Source of the DNA: Polytrichum commune
Taxonomy: Eukaryota; Streptophyta; Polytrichopsida; Polytrichales; Polytrichaceae
Reading direction: 5' to 3'
DNA: 64,000 nt
Assembly (NCBI GenBank): GCA_950295325.1
Contig: OX485804.1
Location: 49,600,001 to 49,664,000 of the forward strand
In this document: piece after piece, positions 7,978 through 58,471 of the stretch
Layout: the number at the start of each line of letters is the position of its first letter
Numbering within the stretch: position 1 is the stretch's first letter
Made by a program: the position numbers and the translations under genes
The notes under the pieces: generated by a model
The model's database searches: none
What the model was told of the DNA's origin: nothing
What the model saw: only the letters and a program-made list of their open reading frames with translations

Positions 7978-10900
7978 GTGCAAAAGAAGGAAAACAAAAG
8001 TTTGTTAAGCAAGGCAGTGAGTGGGATGAGGAACGATGCCGACTTCCATGTGCGTAGTCCCCGTGGGGGCAGATTCAGCTCGTTACCTTCCTCATTTCGT
8101 ACTTTCTCTAATTACCTGCGTAGCGTGTCTGCAAATGCAAGCAGCATTGCTGCATCTACTGTGCGCCAGGCTGCTGTCTCAGCAGCTTCAAGTGGGTCAC
8201 TCAATGAAGACGATCGCCAACGGGAGCAGGTAATGCCTTCATCTTCATACTGTGTCGAATATAAAGAGACAGACAAATGCTGGAAAGTTTCTTGGGAAAA
8301 GAAAATTTCTACAGTTTTGGCTTCTCAATTTTAGGGTATCTCCGTCGTACTTTTGCAATCACAGCAATAATTTTACTGGAATTTGGTCTATATTTCAGAC
8401 GAGAATATGTTTCAAAACCTTGGTGACTGTCTGCTTGTTGTTGTGTCAGTCAGGTCTATCACTGATCGGTATCCAATTCTTTCTTGAGGGAGCAGGTTCA
8501 GTGGGCAAGTTTTGACAAGCTAGAGCTTGGATCAGGGGAGATTCGACAAGTGCTATTGCTTACTTATTTGAATGGTTTCCAAGTATGGGATGTGGAAGAG
8601 GCAAGTAATGTCCATGAACTGGTTTCACGTCGAGATGGTCCAGTTGCATTTCTGCGACTCCAACCAAAGCCAATAGTACCAGATCCAGTTGACGGTGGTG
8701 TTGGTTTCAAGGCAGCTCGGCCACTACTTTTAGTTGTTACAGGGGACACAACAGGTTCTGGGAGTCCAGGTGCTGGAGGGTTTCCGGGTGGGTACGGTGC
8801 AGGGGCTGTGGGTGCATCATTGGGGGTTGGAGGCTCTCACTCTGTGCCGACAGTAGTCCGGTTTTATTCTCTTTGCAACCATTCCTATGTGCATGTATTG
8901 AGGTTCCGAACGGGAATTCATGCAGTCCGTTGCAGTTCTCGAGTTGTTGCAGTTGCTTTGGCGACTCAGGTATGCAATAAGTTTCCGATTCAGTACTGTT
9001 ATTGCGCTTTCAAGTTAAAATGCTCTTGGAAGCAGCTGTAGTGTATTATGTTGCAGTTAATTTTGAGGAGTAAAGAGTGGTCAGAGCATTGAGGGTCATC
9101 AGGAAGCTGATATAAGGGATTGTTTGATACAGTCCTCTTTGTGTTGGAAATTGACCTTACCGAACATGTTAACTGACCTTTGCTGTAGTTTGGCACGTCC
9201 TAGACACTGTTCAGTGTAGATTTATTCTGCCTTTCTATATATACAAAATTGGTTTGTTTAAGTAATTATGTTCTGTATTGGTAGGTGTAGATTGCCTCAT
9301 CTCCTGTGCGATTCTTTTCTCTTCTGCTTTTGATGTACCTTCTTTCTTGTGGCACCGAAATAATGAAGGTCGGCACTTATGAGATTATCTTGACTTTATT
9401 TGGCAGATATATTGCTTTGATGCAGCAACATTGCAAAACATTTTTAGTGTGCTTACCTATCCCTCACCAGCAGCTACGCCAGGTTCCAGTCATTCTGGCT
9501 ATGGCGCTATGGCAGTGGGACCTAGGTGGCTAGCATATGCAGCCAATCAGCCCCTTATGACAACCACAGGACGTGTTTCACCACAACACTTGACACCTTC
9601 ACCAGGAGTTAGCCCTTCGACCTCGCCAGCAAATGGGAGCCTTGTGGCTCACTATGCAAAAGAGTCTAGCAAGCACATTGTGGCGGGTGTTGTTACCCTA
9701 GGTGATATGGGATATAAAACAATTACAAGGTACTGTTCAGAGCTTATGCCGGATGGTGCTAGTGGGTCTCCAGGTGTGGGTAGTCCCAGTTGGAAAAACG
9801 GCACAAATGGCCACAATCATTGGCAAGGGGCCCCTACTCTTGAGCCAGAATTTGCGGGCACTGTAAGTATTAGTTTATTCTCATCTTCAGCAAAACAACA
9901 ATCATTTACTTTCTCCTGGAGCTTAACCTTCTTAGTAGTAGTTCCATCATCTGATATATGTGCACCTCTTTAGGTTAGGCTTGCCAGTGTTCAAGTATGC
10001 TGCAGTCACCAGGCATGTTGTGCTAAGTTTGGTGGATTCTTGAGGTTTGCATGTGGTATTTATGTTGGATGTTGTAATGGGTCTGGTGGATTACAGGTGA
10101 TAGTTCGTGATATTGTGAGTAAAAGTATAGTGGCGCAGTTTAGGGCACACTCAAGCCCTTTGTCAGCGCTTTCATTCGATCCAAGTGGGACCCTTCTGGT
10201 TACAGCATCAGTATATGGGCATAACCTCAATGTTTTTCGCCTTACACCTCCTTCGGTTACTGGTGTAAACACAGCGTGTGGTGATGCCAACACATCGTAT
10301 GTGCACCTATACAAGCTCTCTCGAGGGGTTACCAATGCGGTAAGTGGTGCATGCGACTTTCTTGTTTTTGTGAGTGTTCCTTCTTTGTGGGACAATCATA
10401 AAAGTCTGATTCATTTTGTATTGGTTATTGTCATCTTGACAGGTCATACAGGATATCAATTTTAGTGGTGATAGTCATTGGATAGCTGTCAGCTCCTCAA
10501 GGGGAACAAATCACTTGTTTGCTATCTCTCCCTTCGGTGGTATTGTGGGCCCACAAACTCACGGGACTGTACCTATTGATGGACTGATTGGGCCTACTTT
10601 GACACCTGCGCCAGCATTTCCCTGGTGGTCAAGTACAGGACCTCTCAGGGTTAACCAGCAAGCACTTCCTTCCCCACCCCCAGCTATAAATCTCAATGTA
10701 GTGAGTAGAATAAAGAATGGAAATGGTGGATGGCGGACCACTGTAACAAGTGCTGCAGTGACGGCAACTGGTCGACCAAATGCTCTTGCGGGTGCAGTGG
10801 CTGCTGTTTTCCACGATGGTGGTGGGATAGGTGTGGAGTCAGATGTGGGCATTGGAACCCTTAAAGATCAGTTATGGGTTCTTTGCCCTACAGGGCATCT

Positions 10901-13798
10901 CCTTCGGTATGTTTTACGACCTTCTGCAGGGGGTGAAGGTGGTTATGTAAATGGTTTGCCACAGATGGCAGGCATTGGCACACCAGGAAGCCCTTCTTTT
11001 CCTCAGGAGTTAAAGGTAGTTGTGGAACCTGTAGAGAGGTGGGATGTTTCTCGTCGACCTAATTGGATGGAACGTGAGGAGAGGGTTGAGTCTCATGTGC
11101 CACACCATGATGATGCTGCGAGTGGGGCTTTGGGCAGTTTGGGAAGTCCAGGCGGTTCTTCAGGGGTGTTGTCTAAGGAGGGGACTACCACTGAAGAGCT
11201 GCAACGCTGGTTCATGTCTAATGCTGAAGTGCAGATGCATCAGGCCAGGCCTGTGCCTATATGGGCCAAATCGAAGGTACTTCTTCCTTTGTGATGAAGC
11301 TCTATTGTGATCCCGCAGATATGTTGGTATTTTCCTCCTTTATTAGAACTCTAGTAGTATGGTCTGCTCAGATTGGAACTTGACCAGGACTGTTTTCCTC
11401 CTTCCAGATTCAATTTCATGTGATGCTGTCAGGAGCCCCCAAGGATTCTGAGGCTGATGATGGCTTATACGGAGACGATGTAGTAGAAATGGAGATAGAG
11501 AGGATTCCGACTCGAGTGGTCGAAGTGCGAAGGAAAGATTTGGTTCCTGTTATAGAAAGGCTTCAGAATTTTTCGAAAGTGCAGGGTGCTCGGTGAGGCT
11601 TTTTTTTAAAATTCATCACTCTCACAGATGTTGACATGTGTGCATTCGTGTCATGGTGTCCATTCCTATGTCTGTAAAGCGAGGATCTGATCATCCACCT
11701 TGACTTGTGCATTGGTCCTGGCTAGTGAGGTAAACAACGATGCTTTTTTCTGAAGAAATGAATAGCATCTGACCGTTAAGCCTGCCCTGTCACAGGGACC
11801 TCATGGTGCCAGACACCCTACCTGGAGTGTCAGGTGCCAATGATCAGCTTCTTGGAGATGAAGCTTTGCATGACGGGTTCCTGGGTGGCCGCTTGGGAGG
11901 CATGCCACTTCAGCGTACTAACAGCTCTGGTAGCTTTGGTTTAGAAGGCCCTCCCTTCTTAGCAGATGGAGCTGGCCTTAATGGCTTTCACCATGGTTAT
12001 CAAGGTGCTTTCTCAAGCCCAAGCCCCCTTCAGGGTTAGATAACTTCTTTGATGAAATAGTCTGTAAGTCCAGTGGTTGAGTGTTGGTGGGAGGGTTGGG
12101 CAATGTTTGTCAACCTGGTTTTGATTGAGAGTTTGTTTGGTTACATTATTCAGACACGTTACAAAGGCGTTTTAGAGGTGTATCTTACTGGGAATAAGGA
12201 AGGTTCTTGTGGAGCAAGGTTCTACACCTGCATGCACAATGAGCAGGCAATTGTCGCACTTTCCTCTGTAAGGTTTGCCTCTTCATTGGAGTGCAATCTA
12301 GCTGTCAGCTGCTTGGTCTAAATCACTGCTTCCAGCATCCATTACATGGTTAGTTTCATAAGGGGATAGTGAAAGTGGGATTGTGTATGAGGTTGGTGCA
12401 AGATGGTGTTCTCTGGGTTTCTGTTCCTGGCCCACCTGTTATATAAGAAGGGTTACCGAGTAGAGCTCTGGGTAGAGGCTTGTTTTAAAAATTGATTATA
12501 ATTGTAAATTATAAAATTATCTCAAAATGTAAAATTAAAATTTTGTGATAGAACTTGTACAACACAGATTCTCTTCCAGTGAGGTATTCAGCTGCTTTCT
12601 TTCACTTCTGCGGGTATGAGCTGTTGCAATTGAATTCAGTTAAATCTGAGCTTTAGTTTGCAAGAGTCACTGTAGCTGATCCTTGTCTTGCAGATTTGCC
12701 GGAGATGGCAGCAACATCCACACCCCCATCCTCATTTGGATCTCCATTTTTTCAGCAGACCAGTGATGGCTTGGAACCACCATCTTCAGGGCGATCAGGA
12801 TTGTCACAGAAGTCTCTGTTAAGCTCCAAAACTGTTAACCATGAGTTCTATCAGGCTAATTTTGCTACACAACCAGGCACGGCGGACTCCAGCCCAGTTG
12901 TGATTGGATCTCCTCCTATAGATATTCCAAGGACAAATCGAAGGGACATGGGGATGTTTTTGGGATCTTCCAAACCTGTCCTAACTGCAGGATTCACTAC
13001 CAGCAGTAGATCAACCAGTAGAGGTGAGGATTTTAACCATGACATGCTTGATGGTCTCAGGGGTGGTAAAGGATCACTTTCCTCAGACCCCTCTATGGAT
13101 GGCCAGTTAGGCCACATGATGGCCCAAGTTGTTCCTCAATCACCTGATAATGAGTCTTTAGCTGCTACAAACAGGCAGTTTGACAATTTGGCTGTGCAAG
13201 AGAGCAATGGCATTCAGCACATGGATTCTGGGGTTGTGGCGAATGGAAAGGCCCCCTGGGATATGATGTCAGTAGTGGATGCACCTTGTTCTCAGGCAAT
13301 AGGGAATGGGACCCTCTCCCATGGGCTTCAATCTGGGGGCAGTTCTGCCTCTAAATCAACCTCAAACCCAGAATTTGAACCAGCATTTCTCTTTGACCAT
13401 GGTAGAAACCATGGGAGCAGTGGTGTTGTAAGTGATAGTACTTTGGATGGAAGTCCTCTACATGAAGATCTGAATACTGGCGAAGATGCCGAGAGCCTGG
13501 ATGCACATAGCAAGAGTGAGGACAATGAGGGTGCAGAACAAGCAGATGATGTTTGGGAGGGTGCAATGTTCCCTTTTTGTGAAGAAGGTGAACTCTTAGA
13601 ACATGAAACATGGTGATTGGCATGAACATGTTTTTCCTCCTAAAGTTGTATGATTCTGTTGCCAAGTCTGAAAGAGTCTTGTCATGGCACGAGGTTGTGG
13701 CTAGCAAATTGAATTGCCTGAAGCTGGTTTTGAAATGAAGAGAGATCATATTTTATGTTATTTGAAATATCTCCCTGTTGGGTCTTGCAGATTGCTAG
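7978..13798 (+). CDS. ATG18: ATG18-type autophagy protein with BCAS3 domain (plant ATG18f/g/h class), 9 exons
   Basis: Exons by eye: 7978-8229, 8496-8969, 9407-9862, 10097-10339, 10443-11276, 11408-11592, 11796-12034, 12694-13587, 13791-13798; all junctions are GT-AG and all phases agree, giving about 1,194 aa. Residues 1-84 are a Ser/Ala-rich lead. Exons 2-5 form the WD40 propeller: VQWASFDKLELG at the start of exon 2, NGFQVWDVEEASNVHELVSR, and FDPSGTLLVTAS in exon 4. At residues 468-471 an L-S-R-G stands where canonical PROPPINs have F/L-R-R-G, the phosphoinositide-binding loop. The BCAS3 domain follows across exons 5-6 (EMEIERIPTRVVEVRRKDLV). The rest is a long Ser/Gly/Pro-rich tail ending in an acidic patch and MFPFCEE. 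In the family these proteins act on PI3P membranes in autophagosome formation. The first ATG after the upstream stop was taken as start; Met16 is an alternative. It is longer than the roughly 930-960 aa I recall for Arabidopsis ATG18g/h. Convergent with SAS6. Confidence 0.92.
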
Positions 13799-16285: not shown

Positions 16286-19200
16286 TTACCTACGTGAGAA
16301 GTGACTATTCTGGGGTGACCGGTTTGAGGGCGTCTTCAAGTTCAATGTGGCTTTGGTACGAGAGGGAGACAAATTATTCTCCCGGTCTCCTCCATGTCCT
16401 TTAATAGTATGTGATGATGAATGCTGCTGCTGCTGAGGTGGTGGACTCTCTGAACAAGCGCCGTAAGGTTTTGGTGACTGGGGTCGGTTAAGGTGACTTT
16501 GAAGGCTCCCACCATCACCAGCAGTTTGACTGCTTGAGTCTCCATTCTGATGATGATCCTGCACACTGAACCCTGCAGCCTCGACTTGTGCCCTGCTGCT
16601 GCGGCTTAACTCACTTCTAATTTGGTCACCAGCAGCAGCTGCCTGCATCATCGAGGGTGACTGCCTTCCCGAAGGAGATTGCTGGTTTGGGGATTGGGGA
16701 TGCATGTGGCATCCATCAGATGTTGTCAGACTACCACCCGGTCTGCCTATCGTGATGGGACTTTTGATCAGGCTGCCGTACCCAGACCTGCTTCAGAAAC
16801 AGAAACAAATTAACAAGGTGTTCCAATAGTTGAGTGACAAAAACCTTGGCTTCATACTTCTACCTGCCTAAGCTCATTTGGTCAGCAATAAATTGAAAGT
16901 GCTGAATCAAATGTAGCATCCAGTACTTCATTCTATATGTGGAAATCCACGGTATAGTTGATTTGGTTGTCAGACACTGGGGCAAGTCAAGCCTTCAATC
17001 TTCACATATATATAGCAAACGAGTTGCATACTTACTCTTTGTGACGAGGTGTCAATAAGTTGGCAGTGTTGTGACGTTGTTTGCCTGTAGTTTTATGTAG
17101 TTGAAAATGATGAACACAGGTGATACAAGTTCAAATAAGCAATTAATGATCAGTGGTTTGGCAGTAGTTTAATAAGCATATATTGCTTAGAAAGAGCCAG
17201 ACCTGTCTGCAAAAGAGAGTTGCGGCTGCGGTAGTGCATTGTGCTTGGTTCCCCAAGAACCAGAATCATTCCACGAATTGAGCAGTGTTGTTCCGTCCAA
17301 AGGCATTGTGTTCCCTGTATAGGAACTCAGGTTGCTGGAGCCAGCCATTGCACTGGGAACTGTCACTCCAGCCTTTGGCTTATAATGGACTTTCTGAGTT
17401 GCACAGAGGGCAGCTTTTGTGCCTGGCACATACATTGACCGTTGGCTCCCTGTCATTGTTGGATTTGGATTGAAAACCCCTAAGCCATTTTGCTGATGCT
17501 TGACCTGAATTGCAGGAATTCCTGAAAACTGGGTAGCTGTGGTTGATAAGTAGGGGGAAGACATGGGAAACTGGCTTTTGAAGGCTGTTGATCCAGAGTT
17601 TCCCCCAAGAGAACTGTGCGAAGAGAGAGGTGTATTGGCCTCACCCGGCCGATTGCTCGTGAGACAGGAAGAGAAACACAGTCCATTTGCGTTGGATCGA
17701 GTAAATGTGTTGTAGCGGGAGGTGGGTGCACTTCCCGGGAGTTTACCCAATTGGGCCTCTGTCAGTTGCTGGTTCAACCACCTGCACTTGATAAAAGCAT
17801 ATCATTACAAATTAGGTCTTTCTTGCTGAATGAAGTTTGGCTTACAATCTCATACAGAACTTACGGACCAAATCACAATGGGATTATGATAAGAACCTCA
17901 AGCACTGAGATAAGCAGTACGGATGCTGAATGATCTAGCAAGTGCAACGGGAATGAACACCGATCAGTCACAATTGCCATCCCGTCAGTTTCAGACGTCC
18001 TGCACTACGTAATGGTCAAGCCAGCGATTTGTTGACGTGTCCATTCATTACTGATACGAGGAGCACATTATCAGCCATAATTGATGACCCTCCTATGGTC
18101 TGACCATTACGTTTAGTAATGGAAATTTTACGCCTTGCCGTCAGTTGTAGGAGACCCAGTACATACCTCGCCACTACCGCGGCTCGGTAGGTTGGTCGCC
18201 TACTACAGCCCGTGGGATGGCTCCTCACATTCATCACCTAGTTCCTTGTGACGACTCTCGCTACAGTATACACAGAATCATTGTTGCTACTTTGCTCATT
18301 CTCTAGCGCCACCTTAGTGGTTTGAAAGTCTGGAAATGCTATTTGTGATGGAACAGGTTTTTGGGTCACAATTCTATCTTATCTCGAGCTCCAATTAGCC
18401 CACTTGGGATGGGAACAAGCTTTCTGGTCTCCAATTGTAGAAAGTAAAGCTTGTGTGGGCAGTAAGACGACAAAGGCTAGAAGCTTACTGAATCATCTGT
18501 TGGTTGGACTGCAGCATATTTTGGGCTTCTTCAAGTTTGGTGGTTACTTCCTCCGTCTGCACGATAACCCAAAACATCGCATCTTTTCCTCAGTACCCAG
18601 AAACATTGAGCATAGCATCCGAACATTTTAGAAGACATAATAAGTTGATCTTTGTTACAGCATAGTCTTGAAAGGCGAACATCACCTTCTTCTTACTGCT
18701 TTCCTGGTCCGCTTTCAGATTTGCTAACTCACTGCGCAAGGTGTGATTTTCTCCTTGAGCCTTCTCAATAGCAGCTTGTCGCTCACTGAGCAGATTGTCC
18801 TGCTGGCTCGCAACTTGTCCCTTGAGCTTTACTTTTTGCTTCGAAGCCCGCAGTTCCACCTGAAGGGCCCAGATCTATTGTGAAGGGACTTTGACGAGGA
18901 ACTGAATTTCGAGATATGTATGTACACATATATACCTTTGCACTTTTACAACCAAGTCCAAACCATACAAACTTCATGTGCAGGACATTTTAGATGACAT
19001 ATATATCAGTATTTTAGATCCCTCAGTGAGGTGGTAAATAGTCATATGAGGCACCCTTGCCATGTGGAAAGGGTGAGTTGTCAAATACCCATTACTCAGG
19101 AAATGATGTTGAGATTGTCAATTTGTTACAACCTCATTGTTTTAATGAAGCTAAATCCGCTTGTCTCATACTGGTTGAGTTGGTGCTGAATAGTCAAATC

Positions 19201-22200
19201 AGAGCGGAGGGACACTATTACAAACCTGGAGTTTTTCAATTATCTGGTAGCACTTAGTGAGTTCAGTGGCACTGGCACTCGCCCTCTCCTCAGCCCGGTC
19301 AGCTGCTGTTTGTGCCTCCTTCCACGATGCTTCTAATGCTATCCTGCATTCATGCAAATCCCCAGGCATGAATTCGCAAGCATTTCATTATTCCCTGAAT
19401 GTGTTTGTTTGAAGAAGGAACATAACAATGACCACTACACTTAATTGATGATCACATAATCATGTATTAAGTAAATTGAGAGTTATGCATGACTTTTGAG
19501 CATGATGGACTTGTATGTAGTTAAATCGATGTTTGCATCTTTAGTTTTAACCACGTTTTTATTGAATGTACATCTACAGTGGTGTTTCGACCACATCAGT
19601 TCGCAAAGTATTTTCAATTAGGGTTTACATCACATGCTTCGATTTCTCTTACCCCAAATACCATTATATTGCAATCAGCATATATTGACAGCGCAAACAA
19701 TACTCTCATACATTAATAGATCTGGACATATCAATTGTCCAGAGCTACTTAATTCCTAGTTGACTCAATCTTCAGGCTGGTGTAAATGTCCGAACGCTAC
19801 AGGCATGTTGTGTAATAACAGTATTTTCTGTGAGCTGCCCACGTTTATATATACCTGTGTGAAGCCTGGGCTTCATGCTGCTTTGTCAAATTTGAGAGTA
19901 ACTCATTCTTATCCGAAACCTGAACCAGACACAAATACCTCCATCAGCCATCCTTGACAGATCACCATCCATATATCTCGTTTTTGGAACGGTTTTTGAG
20001 ATTGGTATGTTAGCTGACCTCCTGTTCTAATGCACTAAGTCGAATGAGGTGGTCATTCTGTTGTTTAGCTGCCTCTTGTTTCTGCATTTCCAAGTTACGG
20101 TTGTCTTTCCTTAGACGGTCACCTTCCTGTCCACATTTCCCACCATTGCCACTGGGATGTTATAGCAAATGATGCTCCACTCAGGCACTAATTAAGGTAG
20201 TCCTTCCCAAATCATCCACCACCATATAACCTAAAACCAACACTATGAACTATCGTACACCATTGAAACCCCAAAAATGTATGACAGTGGTACATGTTGT
20301 TGGTTTTGGGTATATGTAGTTGAAGGCAAGAGCAACGGTCTAACCGGACCTTGCAAGTATATGAATGATGTGGCTGTTGAAAGTGGTCAATGTGGTGGGC
20401 TTTAATCTCAGATGCTACTACATGATCCCATACCATCTGGAAAGGGATTTGCTTCCACCTAGCTGCAAGAGCTATTTTTGCAGATACATTATCATCAACT
20501 AGCAGATATTCTGCCACACTACAACGAGATACATAGACTGATCAATTTGAGTTTCGACCACAGAACAACAGGTTTACCAGATTTGTGGTGGCACGCAATG
20601 GAACACCCCAATGCTTGGTGACTATCAAATCTAATAGTGCTTGCTACTGACACTAAGATCATGGCTCAATGGAACAGGCTAGCTTGACTAGATTGAAGAC
20701 AACACCTGATACAGTAATTAGTGTAGCTTTCTTCTAAATGGATGTGATATTCTTCATTAGGGACATATGGAGTGCTACTCACAGTTTCTGAAAGTTTGTG
20801 GATCATTATGGTCCTGATCAATTTAAGGTCCTGAGTGGAAAATCAGCTCCTTAATTTGCATGTTGTCCTTGTGGGTAAACATGTTCGCTTAACTAACTAG
20901 GCAATATTAACTCTTCAGTTTTGAGCGAGTACCTGTAACTTTTCTTCCAGCTCTTTCTCCACACTTGAGAGCTTAGTTTTCATCTCCGTAATCCTGTTCT
21001 CCAATGTATACTTGGTATCTAGCAATGATCGCACCTGCATTCTCAGACTTTTTGACAGAATTAGGATCTACATAAACTTCATTCCACAAGGAACTTTGGC
21101 AATTTTGCACCACAAGGGGAAACGTTGATTAAAGTGGATTTTTTTGATGAATGGATGCCCATAACCAGGTTTTGTCCACTTTAACCCATGTTTCTCCATC
21201 TGGTTCTGAAATACCCAAAGTTCCCTGTGTTCTTAAACTATTGTCGATGTTCAAAGACAGTTAGGGATGAGGGCAATCAATCACAAATTTGAATGAATAC
21301 CTCAAATATATGATGGCATAGATATCATCTTTATCATCAACACCTCAAATATATCATCCTCATCATCAATATTCTGATTGATAAAATTTTGCGAACCTGT
21401 TTATCTAGATCACAAGCCCGTTCTTGTTGTTGATTAACCTGCTGTCGAAGATGGGTCTCTAGTTCAGAGCGATCCCTCTCTAGCCTGTCTTTCAGCTCTG
21501 CAGTCTCCAGCATCATCTGCTCAGAGAAAATCATAACTTGAGAATGTGCTTGAGGACAGGTATTAATATTTTGTACCAGATAATGTGTACACGTGAGAAA
21601 GACTTTAATGCGCATTAGGCATTGAATATTTTAAAAATGTATTATGTGGGATACATTTCGATATTAGTTTTCTTGGGGATCTATTGTGTTGCCATGTTCA
21701 TATATCGATCTTTTTGCAGGCAATTCCTTCTCCAGGATAATGGGTGTTATTGCAGTTATAATTTATTCTGTTAACATATCTGAGTTCCTTTTATGGCGAA
21801 CCTTTTCCTTCTCATGAGCAAGCTCCAGAGTGAATTCAGCTTTCAGCTCACTGATGTTCCGGCATTGGTTCTCCTTCACCTCAGCAAGTTCGCTGCATTC
21901 GTGAGTAGATTGGAATTATTGGTCTTTTGCATTTCTGTGTTCCTACAGATTGCTAATCTAAATTCTGTTCTATTCTCTAAACTTGCAGATGACTGCTATA
22001 GCATCAAAGTCCATTGGAGGTAGATGGGCTGTTTTCAACACACACACACCCATAAAAATTAAATAAAAGCCCTATGGAACGGCCTCATATCCCATCTGCC
22101 GATTATTCGAGCAACAGTTATGACGAAGAACTGTCCGTGGCAGGCTGCAAACTAAACATAATATCGATCAGCCCACAAAACTATGATTGTGGTCACTACT

Positions 22201-23946
22201 GCGTTAGACTGCTTCTGTAAAGTCTGGGTTGCTGATAATTGTACTTGAGAGCTGATTTGTTGTTCTTGGGCAATTAGCCACGGAAACTCATATAAATAGC
22301 AAAGATCAGACAAAATCCCAGCCGGCAAGTAAACCACAAGCATAAGATTTCTCAGATATTTCTGGCTGTAAACATGCCACATAAAGGTAATTCTCAAACA
22401 TCATGAGAAAACTTCTGTAATCTCAGAAATCTCAAAACAAGGGAAGAAAACTTCTGAATGTGGATTATGGGAATTTCGATTCTTACCTGCTCAAATTATT
22501 GACATCACGGAGGGCTTTCTCCAAAGAGTGCAATGTTCGACGCAGTTTTTCATGCATGTCAGAATTGATGGACTGCGTCACAAGCCCAAGCCCAGTGTAC
22601 TGCTTAAAATCTGATCACTTTCCGAGCTGACTTTGATAAGGTCACCACTCCAAGGTATGAAGAGATACTAAGCTGAACTTGACAAACCTTAAATTTGGCA
22701 CTTTAATGAAACGAATTTCACTACCTTGTACTCAGCTAGCCTGCCGGCAAGGAACTGCTTAATAACGGAGTCATTGCCTTGGCGAAACACAAGTGATAAA
22801 TGGCTAAGGTGCTTGAACTGGTTCGTTTCCACCACAGTAAAAGTGGAGTCTCCAGTTCGTATGTGCAGTACAGCTAAGAACCTGCCCATACCCCTGTTTA
22901 TAAGATAACAAGACAATGACATCATCTTACAATATGCAGAAGGACAGAAAAAACCTAAGATGGTTATGATCATGATCTGCTTGCAGTTGCAATCTTGAAG
23001 CCATATGAAGGCAACGATCTGACAGTCTCAAACATGATGTATACGAATGTGATATTGGTCACACTGATGATCCACAAGGATATAATTCACAGACCTGGGT
23101 TTCTCATCAGAAGAGGAAATGATACACTGCTCCAGCAACTCTATGAACTTGTAAGGAAATGTCGCAAAATCTACCAGCAAGCACTGGTCCACTTTCAGGC
23201 TTTGGAAGTCGTCCTCATTCACTTCCAGAGAATATAAGAAGAATGGGTCCAATTCATTTGTAATCTGCACCCGCAGGACCTGAACAAGGGAAAAACGGTA
23301 CATCATTTAAAAGACTTTGCAGAGGTGAATAATTGCATGGCAGGAAAAAAACAAGGAAAAAAGGAATCCCTGTAGTAGCATGCTGAAACCTGTTTTCACT
23401 CGGATGGTTACATGCTTGCAAATTTGCTTTCCTGATCGATCTTACATAGATAATGCTTGTTTCTGATAGAATCTATTTCCTTTGTCACACATAGTCGTCC
23501 ATCAACCTCTTTCAGTTTCATCAAAACATGTATATGTATGTATGTATGTATGTATGTATAGGTGACATAGTCTTTGGCCTCCCTAAAATTCATGAGATGG
23601 TTGTTTTAGGGTATTCTAAAGAGAATGAGGTGGTCAGCACAGAATGTCTTGTTCTAGCATACAACCAAGCCACTTGCCAAACCCCTTGGATTATCACCCC
23701 TACACCTGAAATCAGAAATACTGGCCTACAGAAATAAGCCCACAAATTTAATACAATGACTAAAAGGGAAAGATTTTTTGTGCTCACCTTAGTGGCGCGG
23801 TGAACCTTGCTCAGCCCCATGACAAACCTTGCAGTAAGATCCATGTGTCGGTCTTCGGAATTACACTTGGTGACTCGCACAGGGACAACTTTCTCGAAGA
23901 GTGTGGAGGTACTCTCCATGCCGCCGTCTTCAACCTCAAACCCCAT
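16286..23946 (-). CDS. SAS6: SAS-6 centriole/basal-body cartwheel protein, 14 exons
   Basis: Exons in transcript order: 23946-23788, 23279-23095, 22893-22725, 22572-22487, 21892-21802, 21516-21397, 21034-20933, 20126-20019, 19919-19855, 19343-19226, 18859-18686, 18556-18489, 17781-17203, 16787-16286. All are GT-AG with consistent phases; the product is about 841 aa. Residues 1-171 are the SAS-6 head: LFEKVVPVRV, VHRATKVLRVQITNELDPFF, then NEDDFQSLKVDQCLLVDF, and VVETNQFKHLSHLSL, whose Phe141 matches the conserved Phe of the head-to-head contact. Residues about 172-490 are a heptad coiled coil over nine short exons, ending with LRASKQKVKLKGQ and the MIQWLNQQLTEAQ motif. Residues about 493-841 are a Ser/Gln/Asn/Pro-rich disordered tail. 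SAS-6 dimers form rods that assemble into the ninefold cartwheel; in plants this is needed only for flagellated sperm. Human SAS-6 is 657 aa, so the tail is long. Exon 4 could start instead at 22602, in frame, adding 10 residues; Met10 is a possible alternative start. Confidence 0.95.
23528..23560. repeat. (ATGT)n microsatellite in SAS6 intron 1
   Basis: Tandem ATGT units lie in the first SAS6 intron (23,280-23,787). Confidence 0.9.
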
Positions 23947-24417
23947 CCGATTCCTTTCCTGATTATAGCGTTATAATATGAATCACGTAAGAATGAGAAA
24001 CTATGATTTACAGCATACACACACACACACAGATATATATACACACCTTTGTGTCCAATTCTTATTATTCCAGCAAAGATTATTTTGCAAAGTCCCATGC
24101 AGATTGCAGCCAGCAAAGGATGGGGTACATGATTATGAGAAGAGAAAATGTATCAATGGCGGAAGTGGTGAAGACCTCGTAGAAATGTACGTCGTTGTCG
24201 GGGAACTCGTTCAGCTCGCTGCCAAATAGGAAATCATCACTGACTCTCTTGTTGTTGTTCACGTGCAAATGTGGATGATACATGTGGGCATGTTCGGAAT
24301 GCTTACTCTATGATCCTATACTGCTGCTATACCTAACCCTGAAAGCGGTAAACTTCAAAGCTTCAGAATCTTCAAAGGGCAAAGAGTTTGATAACATTCC
24401 ACCAGATTTTTGTGAAG

Positions 24418-33531: not shown

Positions 33532-35479
33532 ATGTATCTATGCTGTTTCAAAAAGGAAAACATACAGTGTCTTACCAAGAGTTAAGCATGCAATGGGATT
33601 CTTGAAGAACTGGCCAAACAAGTAGAGGGGCTCTTCCAAAGACTTCAGTTCCAATGAGTTCAATGCGTTGAACACCTGTCACATTGAACTGGGCTCATCA
33701 ATTCTGCATCCTTGACACCTCTGATGGCGTGAAACAAGCAGGGGTCATGAAGAATGAAAGATGAAAGTAGCAACCAATGTTGGACTGCTATATAGGTGAA
33801 TGCACAGTGAACACATGGTATCAATACAAAATATCAAAATGATATCAAAGAACCTATCCGACCAGTATCAAAATTGTAACACCAGACAAAGATTGATACT
33901 TGGTGGGTATCATGGAACAAAAGAGCCTTTGTATACCCAAGTTATTATTTGCGTCAATACCATCGTAATGTGTAAAGGCTGTTGCATGGCATATAGACCC
34001 GAATGGTATCAAAAACAAATATATCCCCAAACATCCATACCCTACCGGTATCAAAAAATGAAAAAACCTTATCATATGTACCCAAGTTGTAGTAAAAAAT
34101 AGGTGATACAAGTCCAGCATTGGTAGGAATCTCTTTCCCTCTGTATTTGATCAATTTCAAAACTTTTGAATTCTCTACAAGACAAGTGGCAGCAGGCACC
34201 TTCTGAGGATCTGGGACCTCATTCATTTTTCTTGCAATAAAATTTGGAGGTTATAGAACATACCTTCCAGCATTCTGCGTAGAATGTTCTTATTCCAGCC
34301 TCCTCATGGGGAAATCGACTGATGAGTTCTCTGAGAAAGTCGTCATACTCCCGATGCACTTGCACAGACAGACTATTCGGAAGGTGGTAGTGAACTGTCA
34401 CCGGATCCTCTATCAACTCCATTTTCCGTCCTACTGCTGCCAATGACCTAGTTACCAGATTAATTGACCCCTGCAGGTACCCATCGCAGAGGAAGCTCAA
34501 TTAGGTCACATAGGTAGAACAAAAAACCTTGCTAAGGGTTTTCTTATGGGCTCAAGATTTTCTTAATGCCTCTCACAAGTGTAAGTCTACCCTGACACCC
34601 ACCCGAATCCTCTCATACCATCTAATCATGTAGAGGGATTTTTCAAGTCTCGGTGTAAGATAGGTAGGTACTGCAAAAGTCCAGAAGCCCCTTCATCTGA
34701 ACACTCTCGTGCAAAAGGCCAATATAAGCCATGAATTCATGGAGAGATATGAAATATGTAATTCTTTCTTTCCCATCTGAATTTGACAAGTCGCTTTCAC
34801 TTGACAAAACCTCACATTACCAATTCGATCTTTAGAAAATGCTTAAACCTTTCCTTCTGAACCTTAATTAAGCTCGATCGACAGGACTAGCCCAATAGTG
34901 CGATGTGTTGAACCTAGAAATGTGACCGGAAGGTTCATATCCCCTTGAACGGTTGTTACCGTGAAGAGTGAGCATGACTTTCTAAATTTTCCAAAAAGAA
35001 ATCGAACAAGTGAGTCATAATCCGTGGCATACCTTTGCACTAAATCCAAACATCACCGAGGAACCTACATCAAAAGTATAGCCCTCTCTTTCGAAGTAGC
35101 CCGAGCTTCCACCTGGAATCACATACTTCTCCAAAAGCATAACTCGAGCACCCCGAATGGCTAATTGGGTAGCAGCCACAAGCCCCCCAATGCCAGCCCC
35201 GATGACTATAGCATCATACTCCTCACTTGAATCTCCCACATCGGCATTTTTCGTGGTGATTCCTGCTGCGGTTCCAGCAGTGGCCTTCACTTGGCTGCAT
35301 TTTCTAGGCTTTGCAAATACCTTCGTCAAAAAATTCCCTTTATGAAGTTCCTGAGAAAGGTTTAAGGTTCTTGTCTTCACAAAAGCGGTAGAGAAGGGAG
35401 GTGGGGTTTTGTGGGGGAGGCCATTGGAGGAGGTGAATTGAGTCGATGTGGCACCTATTCGCAAACTTGCAACCGCCAT
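27111..35479 (-). CDS. CRTISO: Carotenoid (prolycopene) isomerase CRTISO, plastid, 13 exons
   Basis: Exons in transcript order: 35479-35033, 34470-34264, 33675-33576, 33139-33057, 32302-32246, 32122-31970, 31012-30934, 30674-30526, 29876-29742, 29220-29107, 28848-28738, 27763-27655, 27172-27111. All are GT-AG and in phase; about 601 aa, close to the 595 aa I recall for Arabidopsis. The enzyme is FAD-dependent and converts poly-cis-lycopene to all-trans-lycopene in plastids. Residues 1 to about 65 are Ser/Thr/basic-rich and read as a transit peptide. The dinucleotide-binding motif [16 protein letters not shown] is at 91-106, followed by [20 protein letters not shown] and [12 protein letters not shown]. 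Later landmarks are [52 protein letters not shown] and the flavin-end motif [16 protein letters not shown]. The upstream in-frame Met at 35614 is a possible alternative start. The last exon is uncertain: it preserves phase but lacks the LLGWLRT-like end I expect. Confidence 0.94.
27800..28020 (+). repeat. Dispersed repeat family B, in CRTISO intron 11
   Basis: This copy runs from a CCCCTCAATTATGTTG-like start through TTTTAAAGACATATCTTTTT and CCACTCAAATACAAGGTG to a CACGTCTAATTT end. It is similar by eye to 31,565-31,780, 37,500-37,740 and 62,580-63,000, all in the same orientation. Confidence 0.7.
28294..28502. mobile_element. MITE family C, copy 1, in CRTISO intron 11
   Basis: Long inverted ends of about 40 bp begin TTTTTGTCTAATTAGTGTGG and are mirrored at the right by CCATACTAATTAGACAAAAA. 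A second copy lies at 36,582-36,788. There is no coding capacity. The target duplication is not clear. Confidence 0.78.
28504..28645. mobile_element. Foldback hairpin in CRTISO intron 11
   Basis: About 62-nt arms face each other around a loop of less than 20 nt: left GTAGTTTGAATG ... CGGTTCACTGAGGGTCAAAC, right GTTTGGCCCTCAATGAACTG ... CATTCAAACACTAC. The transcript would form a long imperfect hairpin of pre-miRNA or MITE type. It directly abuts the family C MITE. Confidence 0.8.
31565..31780 (+). repeat. Dispersed repeat family B, in CRTISO intron 6
   Basis: Contains TCATATAGGTCCCCCCAATT, TCTCTTTTCAACATATGTCT and CACTCAAATATAGGTGTCC, followed by ACATCTACCTTA, in the same order as the other family B copies. 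Confidence 0.72.
32432..32911. mobile_element. 480-bp inverted-end element in CRTISO intron 4
   Basis: Inverted ends GGGGCATTTACACACAAC / GTTGTGTGTAAACGCCCC (18 bp, one mismatch) bound a 480-bp insert flanked by TTGAA and TTGAG. Inside are repeated GTGGTTGTGG words and their complements. There is no coding capacity. The GGGGC-type end resembles PIF/Harbinger- or hAT-type MITEs; the family is not resolved. Confidence 0.75.
33488..33531. repeat. (TA)n(TG)n microsatellite in CRTISO intron 3
   Basis: About ten TA units run directly into about ten TG units. Confidence 0.95.
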
Positions 35480-36580
35480 GGCTGCCACTTGGGGAAGAGA
35501 AAATCTGCAAATTGACAGGCACGAGCCTTGAGAGATTTCCAATGGCCCTACAACAACATTTCCCTTGTTCCCCCCAACATCAACAGCATACAAAGATGAG
35601 GTCAGAAGACGCACAATATGTGTCTACAGCTTAATTCCTGTTATTATCGATGTCACAAGCATCGTCATGACAAGGTTACCACAAACATCATCACTAAAAA
35701 TAATGACAAACTTTCGTGCTTTATCTTATTTAGCCGTGATCATATTTAGTGATCCTATTTAGCCGTGGCGTCATGTCGTAGCAGAGCGTTCAAGAGGAGA
35801 AAATGTAAGAGCAGTACCCAATTTGCAAAATTACAAATCTCAAGCAAGACAAATCTCTCCAACAAGGATTGTGATGGAGATCCAACAAGTTGGCTACCGA
35901 CGAGATTCTACTTGCATTGCTTCTTCAAGGCTGCACTGACCCAAGAAATGAAGTTGTTTTTCCATCAATGGCACCACAACATAACATAACCCTCTTGGCG
36001 CAGCACAAAGAGTTCAATAAAGACGACAAGAACCAAAAGAGGGGAACAAGGATGAAGAAGAAGAGGAAGACGCAACAAACTTGCGGAGAGTGCGGTAATC
36101 CTGGGCTACTTCTTAAACAACCCAGTTTGTTTGTGCATCAAATTGTGCAACAGAGAGGAAATGCATACTTATTAGAGGAAATTGGGGCTCAAGAATAGCA
36201 CACCCAAATTCGAATCGAGCCAATCAAGCCATTCAACGAAGGCACAGTCTGGTCAATGCGCGGAAGGGGGGCGCAACCAGATTCGATTACTTAGGTGCTC
36301 AAGAGTAGAGTCGAGTCGATGAGGATAGAATCCTCGATACATAAAGGGTGTGCGCGGCGGCGGGATCCCAGGTGTTGCAAATCCCGCACAATTCTTTGGC
36401 AATTCATGCTTCGTATCAGTTTAGTTATCCTCAACCAGCACGAACGCTCCGGAACCTCTCTCCAGCCTAAAAACCCAACACAAGTGTAAGCTAAAGGATG
36501 TGGGCCTACCTAGGGTAGATGGGTCTTAAATGGTTACATTTCCCAACTAGCCCACTCTCAATCTCCCATGTGCACTACAA
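35480..36580. other. Upstream region of CRTISO, no gene recognised
   Basis: 35,480-35,614 is open in frame with the CRTISO start and may be 5' UTR or an N-terminal extension. Beyond that only short open frames occur, including a Lys-rich 102-codon frame at 35,890-36,198 (+) without a recognisable domain. Confidence 0.5.
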
Positions 36581-57048: not shown

Positions 57049-57870
57049 CAGGGTTGTCTATCGTGACGTCCTGCCACCGTCATGACGTCATGACGTGTCG
57101 TGTCGGGGCGGACCCCTCCGTCACGACATAATAGGGTCCACGTAGGGTCATACTAGGGGGAAGCTAGTAGGGTGGGTAAAATACTTACCTTCTTGCCAAG
57201 GTGGCATCCAATCTGGCAGAAAAATCCGACGTGGATGTGCATATTTCCCTTGCCAGGTAAATCATTTTGCCTTTGTGTTTATCATTCTGTTAAAACCAAA
57301 GTAGTAAAATATGACAAATGAGGGTGTGGGGGGAGGGGAACGGAGCGGACGGGGACGGGAACGCCAGATGGAGGGCCGGATGGGGGCCGGATGGGGTACC
57401 GGATGGGGTATGGATGGGGGCCGGATTGGGGTTCGGATTAGGGGGGACCGGGTTCGGATGGAGGGGGGGCCAGGTTCGGATGGGGGGGGGAGGGGGTTCG
57501 GATTAGGGGGGGCCGGGTTCGGATGGGGGGGGGGGGGGCGGATGGAGGCCGGATGAGGGCCGGATGGGGTGCCGGATGGGGGAGGGGAACAGGGGAGGGG
57601 AACGTAGGGAGCGGGGGGAACGGGGGGGGGGATGGGCGCTAGTAATTTTTTTCCCACTTTACCTCTACTTTGCTGACATGGCACCATACGTGGACATCGT
57701 AAATCCTACGTGTCCTGATTGGGGTAATGTAATTACACAAAAAAATACGGTAAAATTCAAGTTCGTCAAGATAAAGATGGCATCCGGCATAATGTCGTGA
57801 TAGATACGTGTCGTGACGCCACGACATTATGTCGGGATTAGCCTCCGTCACGACACAATAGACAACCCTG
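57049..57870. mobile_element. 822-bp hAT-like non-autonomous element
   Basis: Inverted ends start CAGGGTTGTCTAT on both sides (13 of 13, then about 4 of the next 7). The flanks CATATGCA (57,041-57,048) and TATATGCA (57,871-57,878) agree at 7 of 8, consistent with an 8-bp hAT duplication. Sub-terminal zones are rich in GTCGTGACG-type palindromic words. The middle is a G-rich minisatellite. No transposase is encoded. Confidence 0.85.
57315..57630 (+). repeat. G-rich minisatellite inside the hAT-like element
   Basis: Irregular tandem units of about 10-30 bp are built from GGATGGGGGCCGGAT, GGTTCGGATTAGGGGGG and related words, with many runs of four or more G on the plus strand. The Pro-rich and Gly-rich open frames over it are products of composition, not genes. 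Confidence 0.9.
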
Positions 57871-58399: not shown

Positions 58400-58471
58400 G
58401 CCTTTATAGCTCAGTGGTAGAGCGTCAGTCTTGTAAACTGAAGGTCCAGAGTTCGATCCTCTGTGGAGGCA
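58400..58471 (+). tRNA. tRNA-Thr (anticodon UGU)
   Basis: This folds as a complete 72-nt cloverleaf. The 7-bp acceptor stem is GCCTTTA against TGGAGGC (with G-U pairs). The D stem is GCTC/GAGC around AGTGGTA, and the 5-bp anticodon stem is TCAGT/ACTGA. The loop is CTTGTAA with anticodon TGT. The variable region is AGGTC and the T arm is CAGAG-TTCGATC-CTCTG; the discriminator base is A. There is no encoded CCA, as expected for a nuclear gene. The D- and T-arm sequences also serve as the internal A and B boxes for RNA polymerase III. It does not look like the chloroplast trnT genes I remember, so I take it as nuclear. Confidence 0.93.

What the first reader, a model, noticed from the sequence alone, without database searches (positions are those of the whole stretch)
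16286..23946. SAS-6 cartwheel gene marks a plant lineage with flagellated sperm
The head domain, coiled coil and end-of-coil motif all match SAS-6, and 14 exons join without a phase conflict. Family knowledge: flowering plants lost centriole genes. The host should therefore be a bryophyte, lycophyte, fern, cycad, Ginkgo or streptophyte alga. In such plants the gene should be silent except in spermatogenous cells.
Basis: partly seen in the sequence, partly recalled or inferred. Interest (0 to 1): 0.75.

Follow-up and report, generated by a model that had tools for sequence, protein, structure and literature searches.

The report
Moss SAS-6 centriole cartwheel gene
This is an intact, apparently single-copy moss gene for SAS-6, the protein that sets the ninefold pattern of the basal bodies under swimming sperm; it is an ordinary, expected gene, and the host is most likely a haircap-type moss.

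Summary
On the minus strand, 14 exons from 23946 to 16286 join with 13 GT-AG introns into one 855-residue frame without internal stops. Residues 16-151 match Pfam SAS-6_N over nearly the whole model (E 9.9e-32). The head's best PDB match is 6zz8, 'Centriole protein' (E 6e-46). The coil searched alone finds SAS-6 coils first and without gaps (E about 1e-7); this separates it from the tail-less SAS6L family. No other copy was found in the 408 Mb genome. The lineage inference is right and can be narrowed: seven chromosome-sized contigs, LEAFY genes of moss type II and type I-like kinds, a nicotianamine synthase gene, and flagellar RSP3 and IFT46. With published distributions this points to an early-diverging, non-Bryopsida moss, probably Polytrichales. 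A review reports that SAS-6 is required for bicentriole formation in Physcomitrium. Sperm-only expression could not be tested; DUO1 motifs upstream are not enriched. A new member of a well-known family: low interest.

The parts
23788..23946 (-). exon 1, start codon at 23946; N-terminus and first part of the SAS-6 head
   Evidence: Pfam SAS-6_N residues 16-151
23095..23279 (-). exon 2, head domain
   Evidence: SAS-6_N genome match
22725..22893 (-). exon 3, end of head domain with Phe141, the residue that by homology docks into the next head
22487..22599 (-). exon 4, start of coiled coil (acceptor could be 3 bases earlier)
21802..21892 (-). exon 5, coiled coil
21397..21516 (-). exon 6, coiled coil
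20933..21034 (-). exon 7, coiled coil
20019..20126 (-). exon 8, coiled coil
19855..19919 (-). exon 9, coiled coil
   Evidence: its first part is in the match
19226..19343 (-). exon 10, coiled coil
18686..18874 (-). exon 11, coiled coil (alternative in-frame acceptor 15 bases further in)
18489..18556 (-). exon 12, end of coiled coil
17203..17781 (-). exon 13, W-L-N motif (residues 497-499) and first part of the Ser/Gly/Pro-rich tail
16286..16787 (-). exon 14, rest of the tail and TAA stop

Best explanation
The gene encodes the moss ortholog of SAS-6. Two chains pair through a coiled coil of about 320 residues. Nine such dimers join head to head through Phe141 into the hub ring of the cartwheel, and the coils are its spokes. 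In moss antheridia stacked rings would template the bicentriole that splits into the two basal bodies of the sperm. Shown here: gene structure, head and coil homology, the conserved Phe, no second copy found, and a moss-like host genome with other flagellar genes. Inferred from the family and from Physcomitrium: ring formation, bicentriole role and sperm-lineage expression.
For: Gene model; SAS-6_N E 9.9e-32. The 22 PDB sequences that match the head at E <= 0.01 are named 'Centriole protein', SAS-6, spindle assembly abnormal protein 6 homolog or, in one case, a protein with that N-terminal domain. Phe141 aligns with the Phe of 6zz8; 3q0x and 6zzc carry Glu there; that these are F145E mutants of Chlamydomonas SAS-6 is recalled. 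Coil aligned without gaps to SAS-6 or centriole-protein coils over 104, 98 and 77 residues (E 1e-7, 1.2e-7 and 0.11). All 14 protein matches in G000 lie in this locus and it gives the only SAS-6_N match. RSP3 and IFT46 present (0 of 14 control genomes ring for either). Moss-like host. Physcomitrium SAS-6 required for bicentriole-mediated centriole formation, as told in the review PMC9014216 (passages).
Against: No transcript or protein data. No moss SAS-6 sequence was available for direct comparison. Tcp10_C (SAS-4) and HYLS1_C gave 0 matches; nothing rang in the controls either, so this does not show absence. The IFT57 matches are repetitive, in several frames, and 3 of 14 prokaryote controls ring too, so they count for nothing. 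The single-sequence fold was poor (mean pLDDT 48.6).
Confidence: 0.94

Rival explanations
1. It is a member of the SAS6L family (head without coil) or of another head-plus-coil family of the XRCC4 kind.
For: The head domain is shared between SAS-6 and SAS6L (PMC3697468, passages). The likeness of XRCC4-type heads is recalled.
Against: A long coil follows the head and its own best PDB matches are SAS-6 coils, gapless; SAS6L lacks the tail. The 22 head matches all carry SAS-6 or centriole names. No tree was built.
Confidence: 0.02
2. The gene is a relic: SAS-6 kept in a lineage that makes no centrioles, decaying or put to another use.
For: SAS-6 is reported in Ostreococcus and Encephalitozoon (PMC3697468, passages), so presence does not prove flagella. 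SAS-4 and HYLS1 domains were not found, though without a working control.
Against: All 14 exons are open with GT-AG introns; RSP3 and IFT46 are present; the host looks like a moss, and all non-seed plants make cilia for their male gametes (PMC3268115, abstract and passages).
Confidence: 0.03

Closest known systems
SAS-6 / Bld12p of Chlamydomonas (PDB 6zz8, 3q0x and related chains named 'Centriole protein'; the species is recalled)
   Same: Head aligned over query residues 10-227, docking Phe conserved; coil in register over 77 residues at weak score (6yrl, E 0.11)
   Different: 346 residues follow the end of the coil here, total 855, against about 600 for SAS-6 in general (PMC3697468, passages)
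SAS-6 of Physcomitrium patens (bicentriole assembly)
   Same: Same family; the review PMC9014216 reports it as required for bicentriole-mediated centriole formation in this moss (passages)
   Different: I had no sequence of it, so it was not aligned; the host here is probably of another moss class
SAS6L family
   Same: Shared head domain
   Different: SAS6L has no coiled-coil tail; this gene has one

Membership tests
SAS-6 | N-terminal SAS-6 head domain | tested here: met
   Pfam SAS-6_N 110.4 bits, profile 2-135 of 135; PDB best E 6.3e-46
SAS-6 | Long coiled coil directly after the head | tested here: met
   About 320 residues with at most 1 Pro or Gly in each 28-residue window from 183 to 504; SAS-6 coils are the only PDB matches at E <= 0.001
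SAS-6 | Hydrophobic Phe or Ile in the head loop for head-to-head docking | tested here: met
   Phe141 aligned with the Phe of 6zz8; role of the residue from PMC4113102 (passages)
SAS-6 | Ninefold ring formation and localisation to the cartwheel | not testable with these tools
   needs purified protein or microscopy
SAS6L | Head domain without coiled-coil tail | tested here: not met
   coil present; definition from PMC3697468
Host: non-Bryopsida moss | Both type II and type I LEAFY genes | tested here: met
   Two type II-like domains (Asp, Cys) and one type I-like (His, Arg at two of three sites; the third site, by recalled numbering, differs from type I); distribution from PMC6588583 (passages), which also reports both types in the liverwort Plagiochila
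Host: Polytrichales | Seven chromosomes and a fungal-type NAS gene | tested here: inconclusive
   Seven large contigs hold 406.1 of 407.8 Mb; one NAS match, but fungal or bacterial kind not resolved; n = 7 for Polytrichum is recalled

The most novel reading that the evidence does not exclude
The long Ser/Gly/Pro/Thr/Gln-rich tail, 346 residues after the coil, is a moss addition that helps build the shared elongated cartwheel stack of the bicentriole or its splitting.
Probability: 0.06. Interest if true: 0.45.

Novelty: new member of a known kind. Interest (0 to 1): 0.15.

Why it matters
It is a clean, complete SAS-6 gene model from what is probably an early-diverging moss class, useful for comparing centriole assembly across land plants. 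It fits what the family's known distribution predicts and changes no view.

Tried and rejected
An optional 49-base exon at 17036-17084, seen by eye in the letters, has AG and GT at its edges but ends in a phase that does not fit the last exon; without it the phase fits. A 5' exon in 24083-24307 is left open. DUO1 motif RRCSGTT (from PMC6290024, passages): 0 in 500, 1 in 1000 and 2 in 2000 upstream bases; 30% of the 1-kb and 26% of the 2-kb stretches scanned across the window have as many: no signal. The AlphaFold model of residues 1-239 without an alignment was too poor to search with. IFT57 matches were discarded as repetitive. Tcp10_C and HYLS1_C: 0 matches, uninformative. NAS against GTDB genomes: 44 stretches matched a pattern, none confirmed; this tool finds close relatives only, so it does not decide the gene's origin. 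The 2021 bicentriole paper is not held, so its result is taken from a review. Three paper searches (listings only, of which 3, 10 and 10 papers were shown) listed no genome report for a Polytrichum. Passages of PMC10879339, PMC12630451 and PMC10096954 were seen and gave nothing decisive. Against Polytrichales by size alone: a table row in PMC13120521 gives the Bryales moss Ptychostromum knowltonii 408.8 Mb, close to G000; but its N50 there is 32.61 Mb, while the contig lengths give about 59 Mb, and Bryopsida are reported to have type II LEAFY only.

Full report
Observation. The minus strand around 16-24.6 kb was read for open pieces and exon edges. Fourteen exons, 23946 to 16286, join with 13 of 13 introns GT-AG, phases consistent, 2568 coding bases, 855 residues and one final stop.

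Identity. Of 24736 Pfam models only SAS-6_N matches at E 0.01 or better (E 9.9e-32, residues 16-151). 22 PDB sequences match the first 239 residues at E 0.01 or better; their names are centriole protein, SAS-6, spindle assembly abnormal protein 6 homolog, or (one) a protein with that N-terminal domain. The best is 6zz8 (E 6.3e-46, aligned 10-227). Phe141 falls on the Phe of 6zz8; 3q0x and 6zzc carry Glu there. PMC4113102 (passages) says that a Phe (Chlamydomonas, zebrafish) or Ile (C. elegans) enters a pocket of the next head and that the contact is essential for centriole assembly.

Coil. Residues 172-508 searched alone give two PDB sequences at E 0.001 or better, both SAS-6. At E up to 1 there are ten; the first three are SAS-6 or 'Centriole protein', aligned without gaps; the third has E 0.11, the first of another family 0.16. 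SAS6L lacks the coil (PMC3697468, passages). After the W-L-N motif and the end of the coil come 346 residues rich in Ser, Gly, Pro, Thr and Gln. The likeness of the W-L-N motif to other SAS-6 proteins is recalled.

Copy number. The family search of G000 gives one match, in exon 2. The protein search gives 14 matches, all in this locus, one for each exon. Counts from this tool are lower bounds.

Host. G000 has 407.8 Mb in 64 contigs. C1 to C7 are 77.9 to 42.1 Mb and sum to 406.1 Mb; of the other 57 contigs, the nine asked for are at most 147 kb. LEAFY: four SAM_LFY matches. Three have DNA-binding-domain exons in the DNA read; around the fourth, weak one (36.9 bits) my motif scan found none in L005 or L010. 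Two carry Asp and Cys as 4bhk does (4bhk as Physcomitrium LFY1 is recalled). One of these two was searched: 4bhk 218.7 bits, next 2vy1 (LEAFY) 171.1. The third carries His and Arg as 2vy1 does at these two sites, though its best match is also 4bhk (201.3 against 180.6 bits); at the third site, by recalled numbering, it does not have the type I residue. PMC6588583 (passages) reports type II in Bryopsida, both types in Tetraphis, Andreaea, Sphagnum and Takakia, both in Polytrichum commune by an earlier comment, and both in the liverwort Plagiochila. Against a liverwort: n = 9 is the basic number in nearly all of them (PMC5021289, passages), and among liverworts NAS is given for Blasia only (PMC12454661, figure legend). 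G000 has one NAS match (E 9.1e-60; 1 of 14 controls, Methanosarcina, also rings). That paper describes NAS in Polytrichales and Tetraphidales as well as in Funaria- and Hypnum-type mosses; I saw no statement on Sphagnum or Andreaea. n = 7 for Polytrichum is recalled; a review gives seven as the suggested ancestral moss number (PMC13120521, passages). The same review lists a Bryales moss of 408.8 Mb, near in size but with a different N50. Nuclear DNA of two Polytrichum species is given as 0.48 pg (P. piliferum) and 0.76 pg (P. juniperinum), so size does not decide. Polytrichales is likely, not proven.

Flagella. RSP3 gives 4 matches at two loci and IFT46 3 matches at one locus; 0 of 14 prokaryote controls ring for either. 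Tcp10_C and HYLS1_C give none, without a working control. IFT57 matches are repetitive. All non-seed plants make cilia for their male gametes (PMC3268115, abstract and passages). SAS-6 by itself would not prove this, as Ostreococcus shows.

Mechanism. In bryophytes two centrioles form de novo from one shared cartwheel stack, the bicentriole, and SAS-6, Bld10 and POC1 are reported as required for it in Physcomitrium (PMC9014216, passages; PMC4113102, passages). The gene found here should do the same; this is inference. Expression was not tested; the DUO1 motif scan gave no enrichment.

Verdict. An ordinary, intact moss SAS-6.

Noticed in passing
G000 C1:40568430-40575000, C1:62296262-62303500, C7:8633500-8640760, C7:14029380-14036000: One genome carries two type II-like and one type I-like LEAFY DNA-binding domain, plus a fourth, weak SAM_LFY match at C7:14.03 Mb with no DNA-binding-domain motif found in the DNA read around it.
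   Followed up: partly
G000 C4:11912553-11913218: A nicotianamine synthase match inside one open frame of 395 codons; published work explains moss NAS genes by transfer from fungi or bacteria (PMC12454661, passages). Origin not resolved here.
   Followed up: partly
window 8484-13616 +: BCAS3-type gene on the + strand, converging on the SAS-6 gene: BCAS3_WD40 in 8484-9041 and BCAS3 in 10515-11294; the open frame 12696-13616 matched no family.
   Followed up: no
window 35015-35614 - (further exon-like pieces down to about 28.9 kb, by eye): First exon of an FAD/NAD-binding oxidoreductase (NAD_binding_8); carotenoid isomerase is a guess from recall.
   Followed up: no
window 57363-57603: GC-rich tandem repeat array with units of 11 to 65 bases, overlapping a proline-rich open frame.
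   Followed up: no
window 58400-58471 +: tRNA-Thr(TGT) gene.
   Followed up: no
G000 C2:59299937-59300906: Stretch open for more than 500 codons in several frames that gives overlapping IFT57 coil-like matches; probably a repeat.
   Followed up: no
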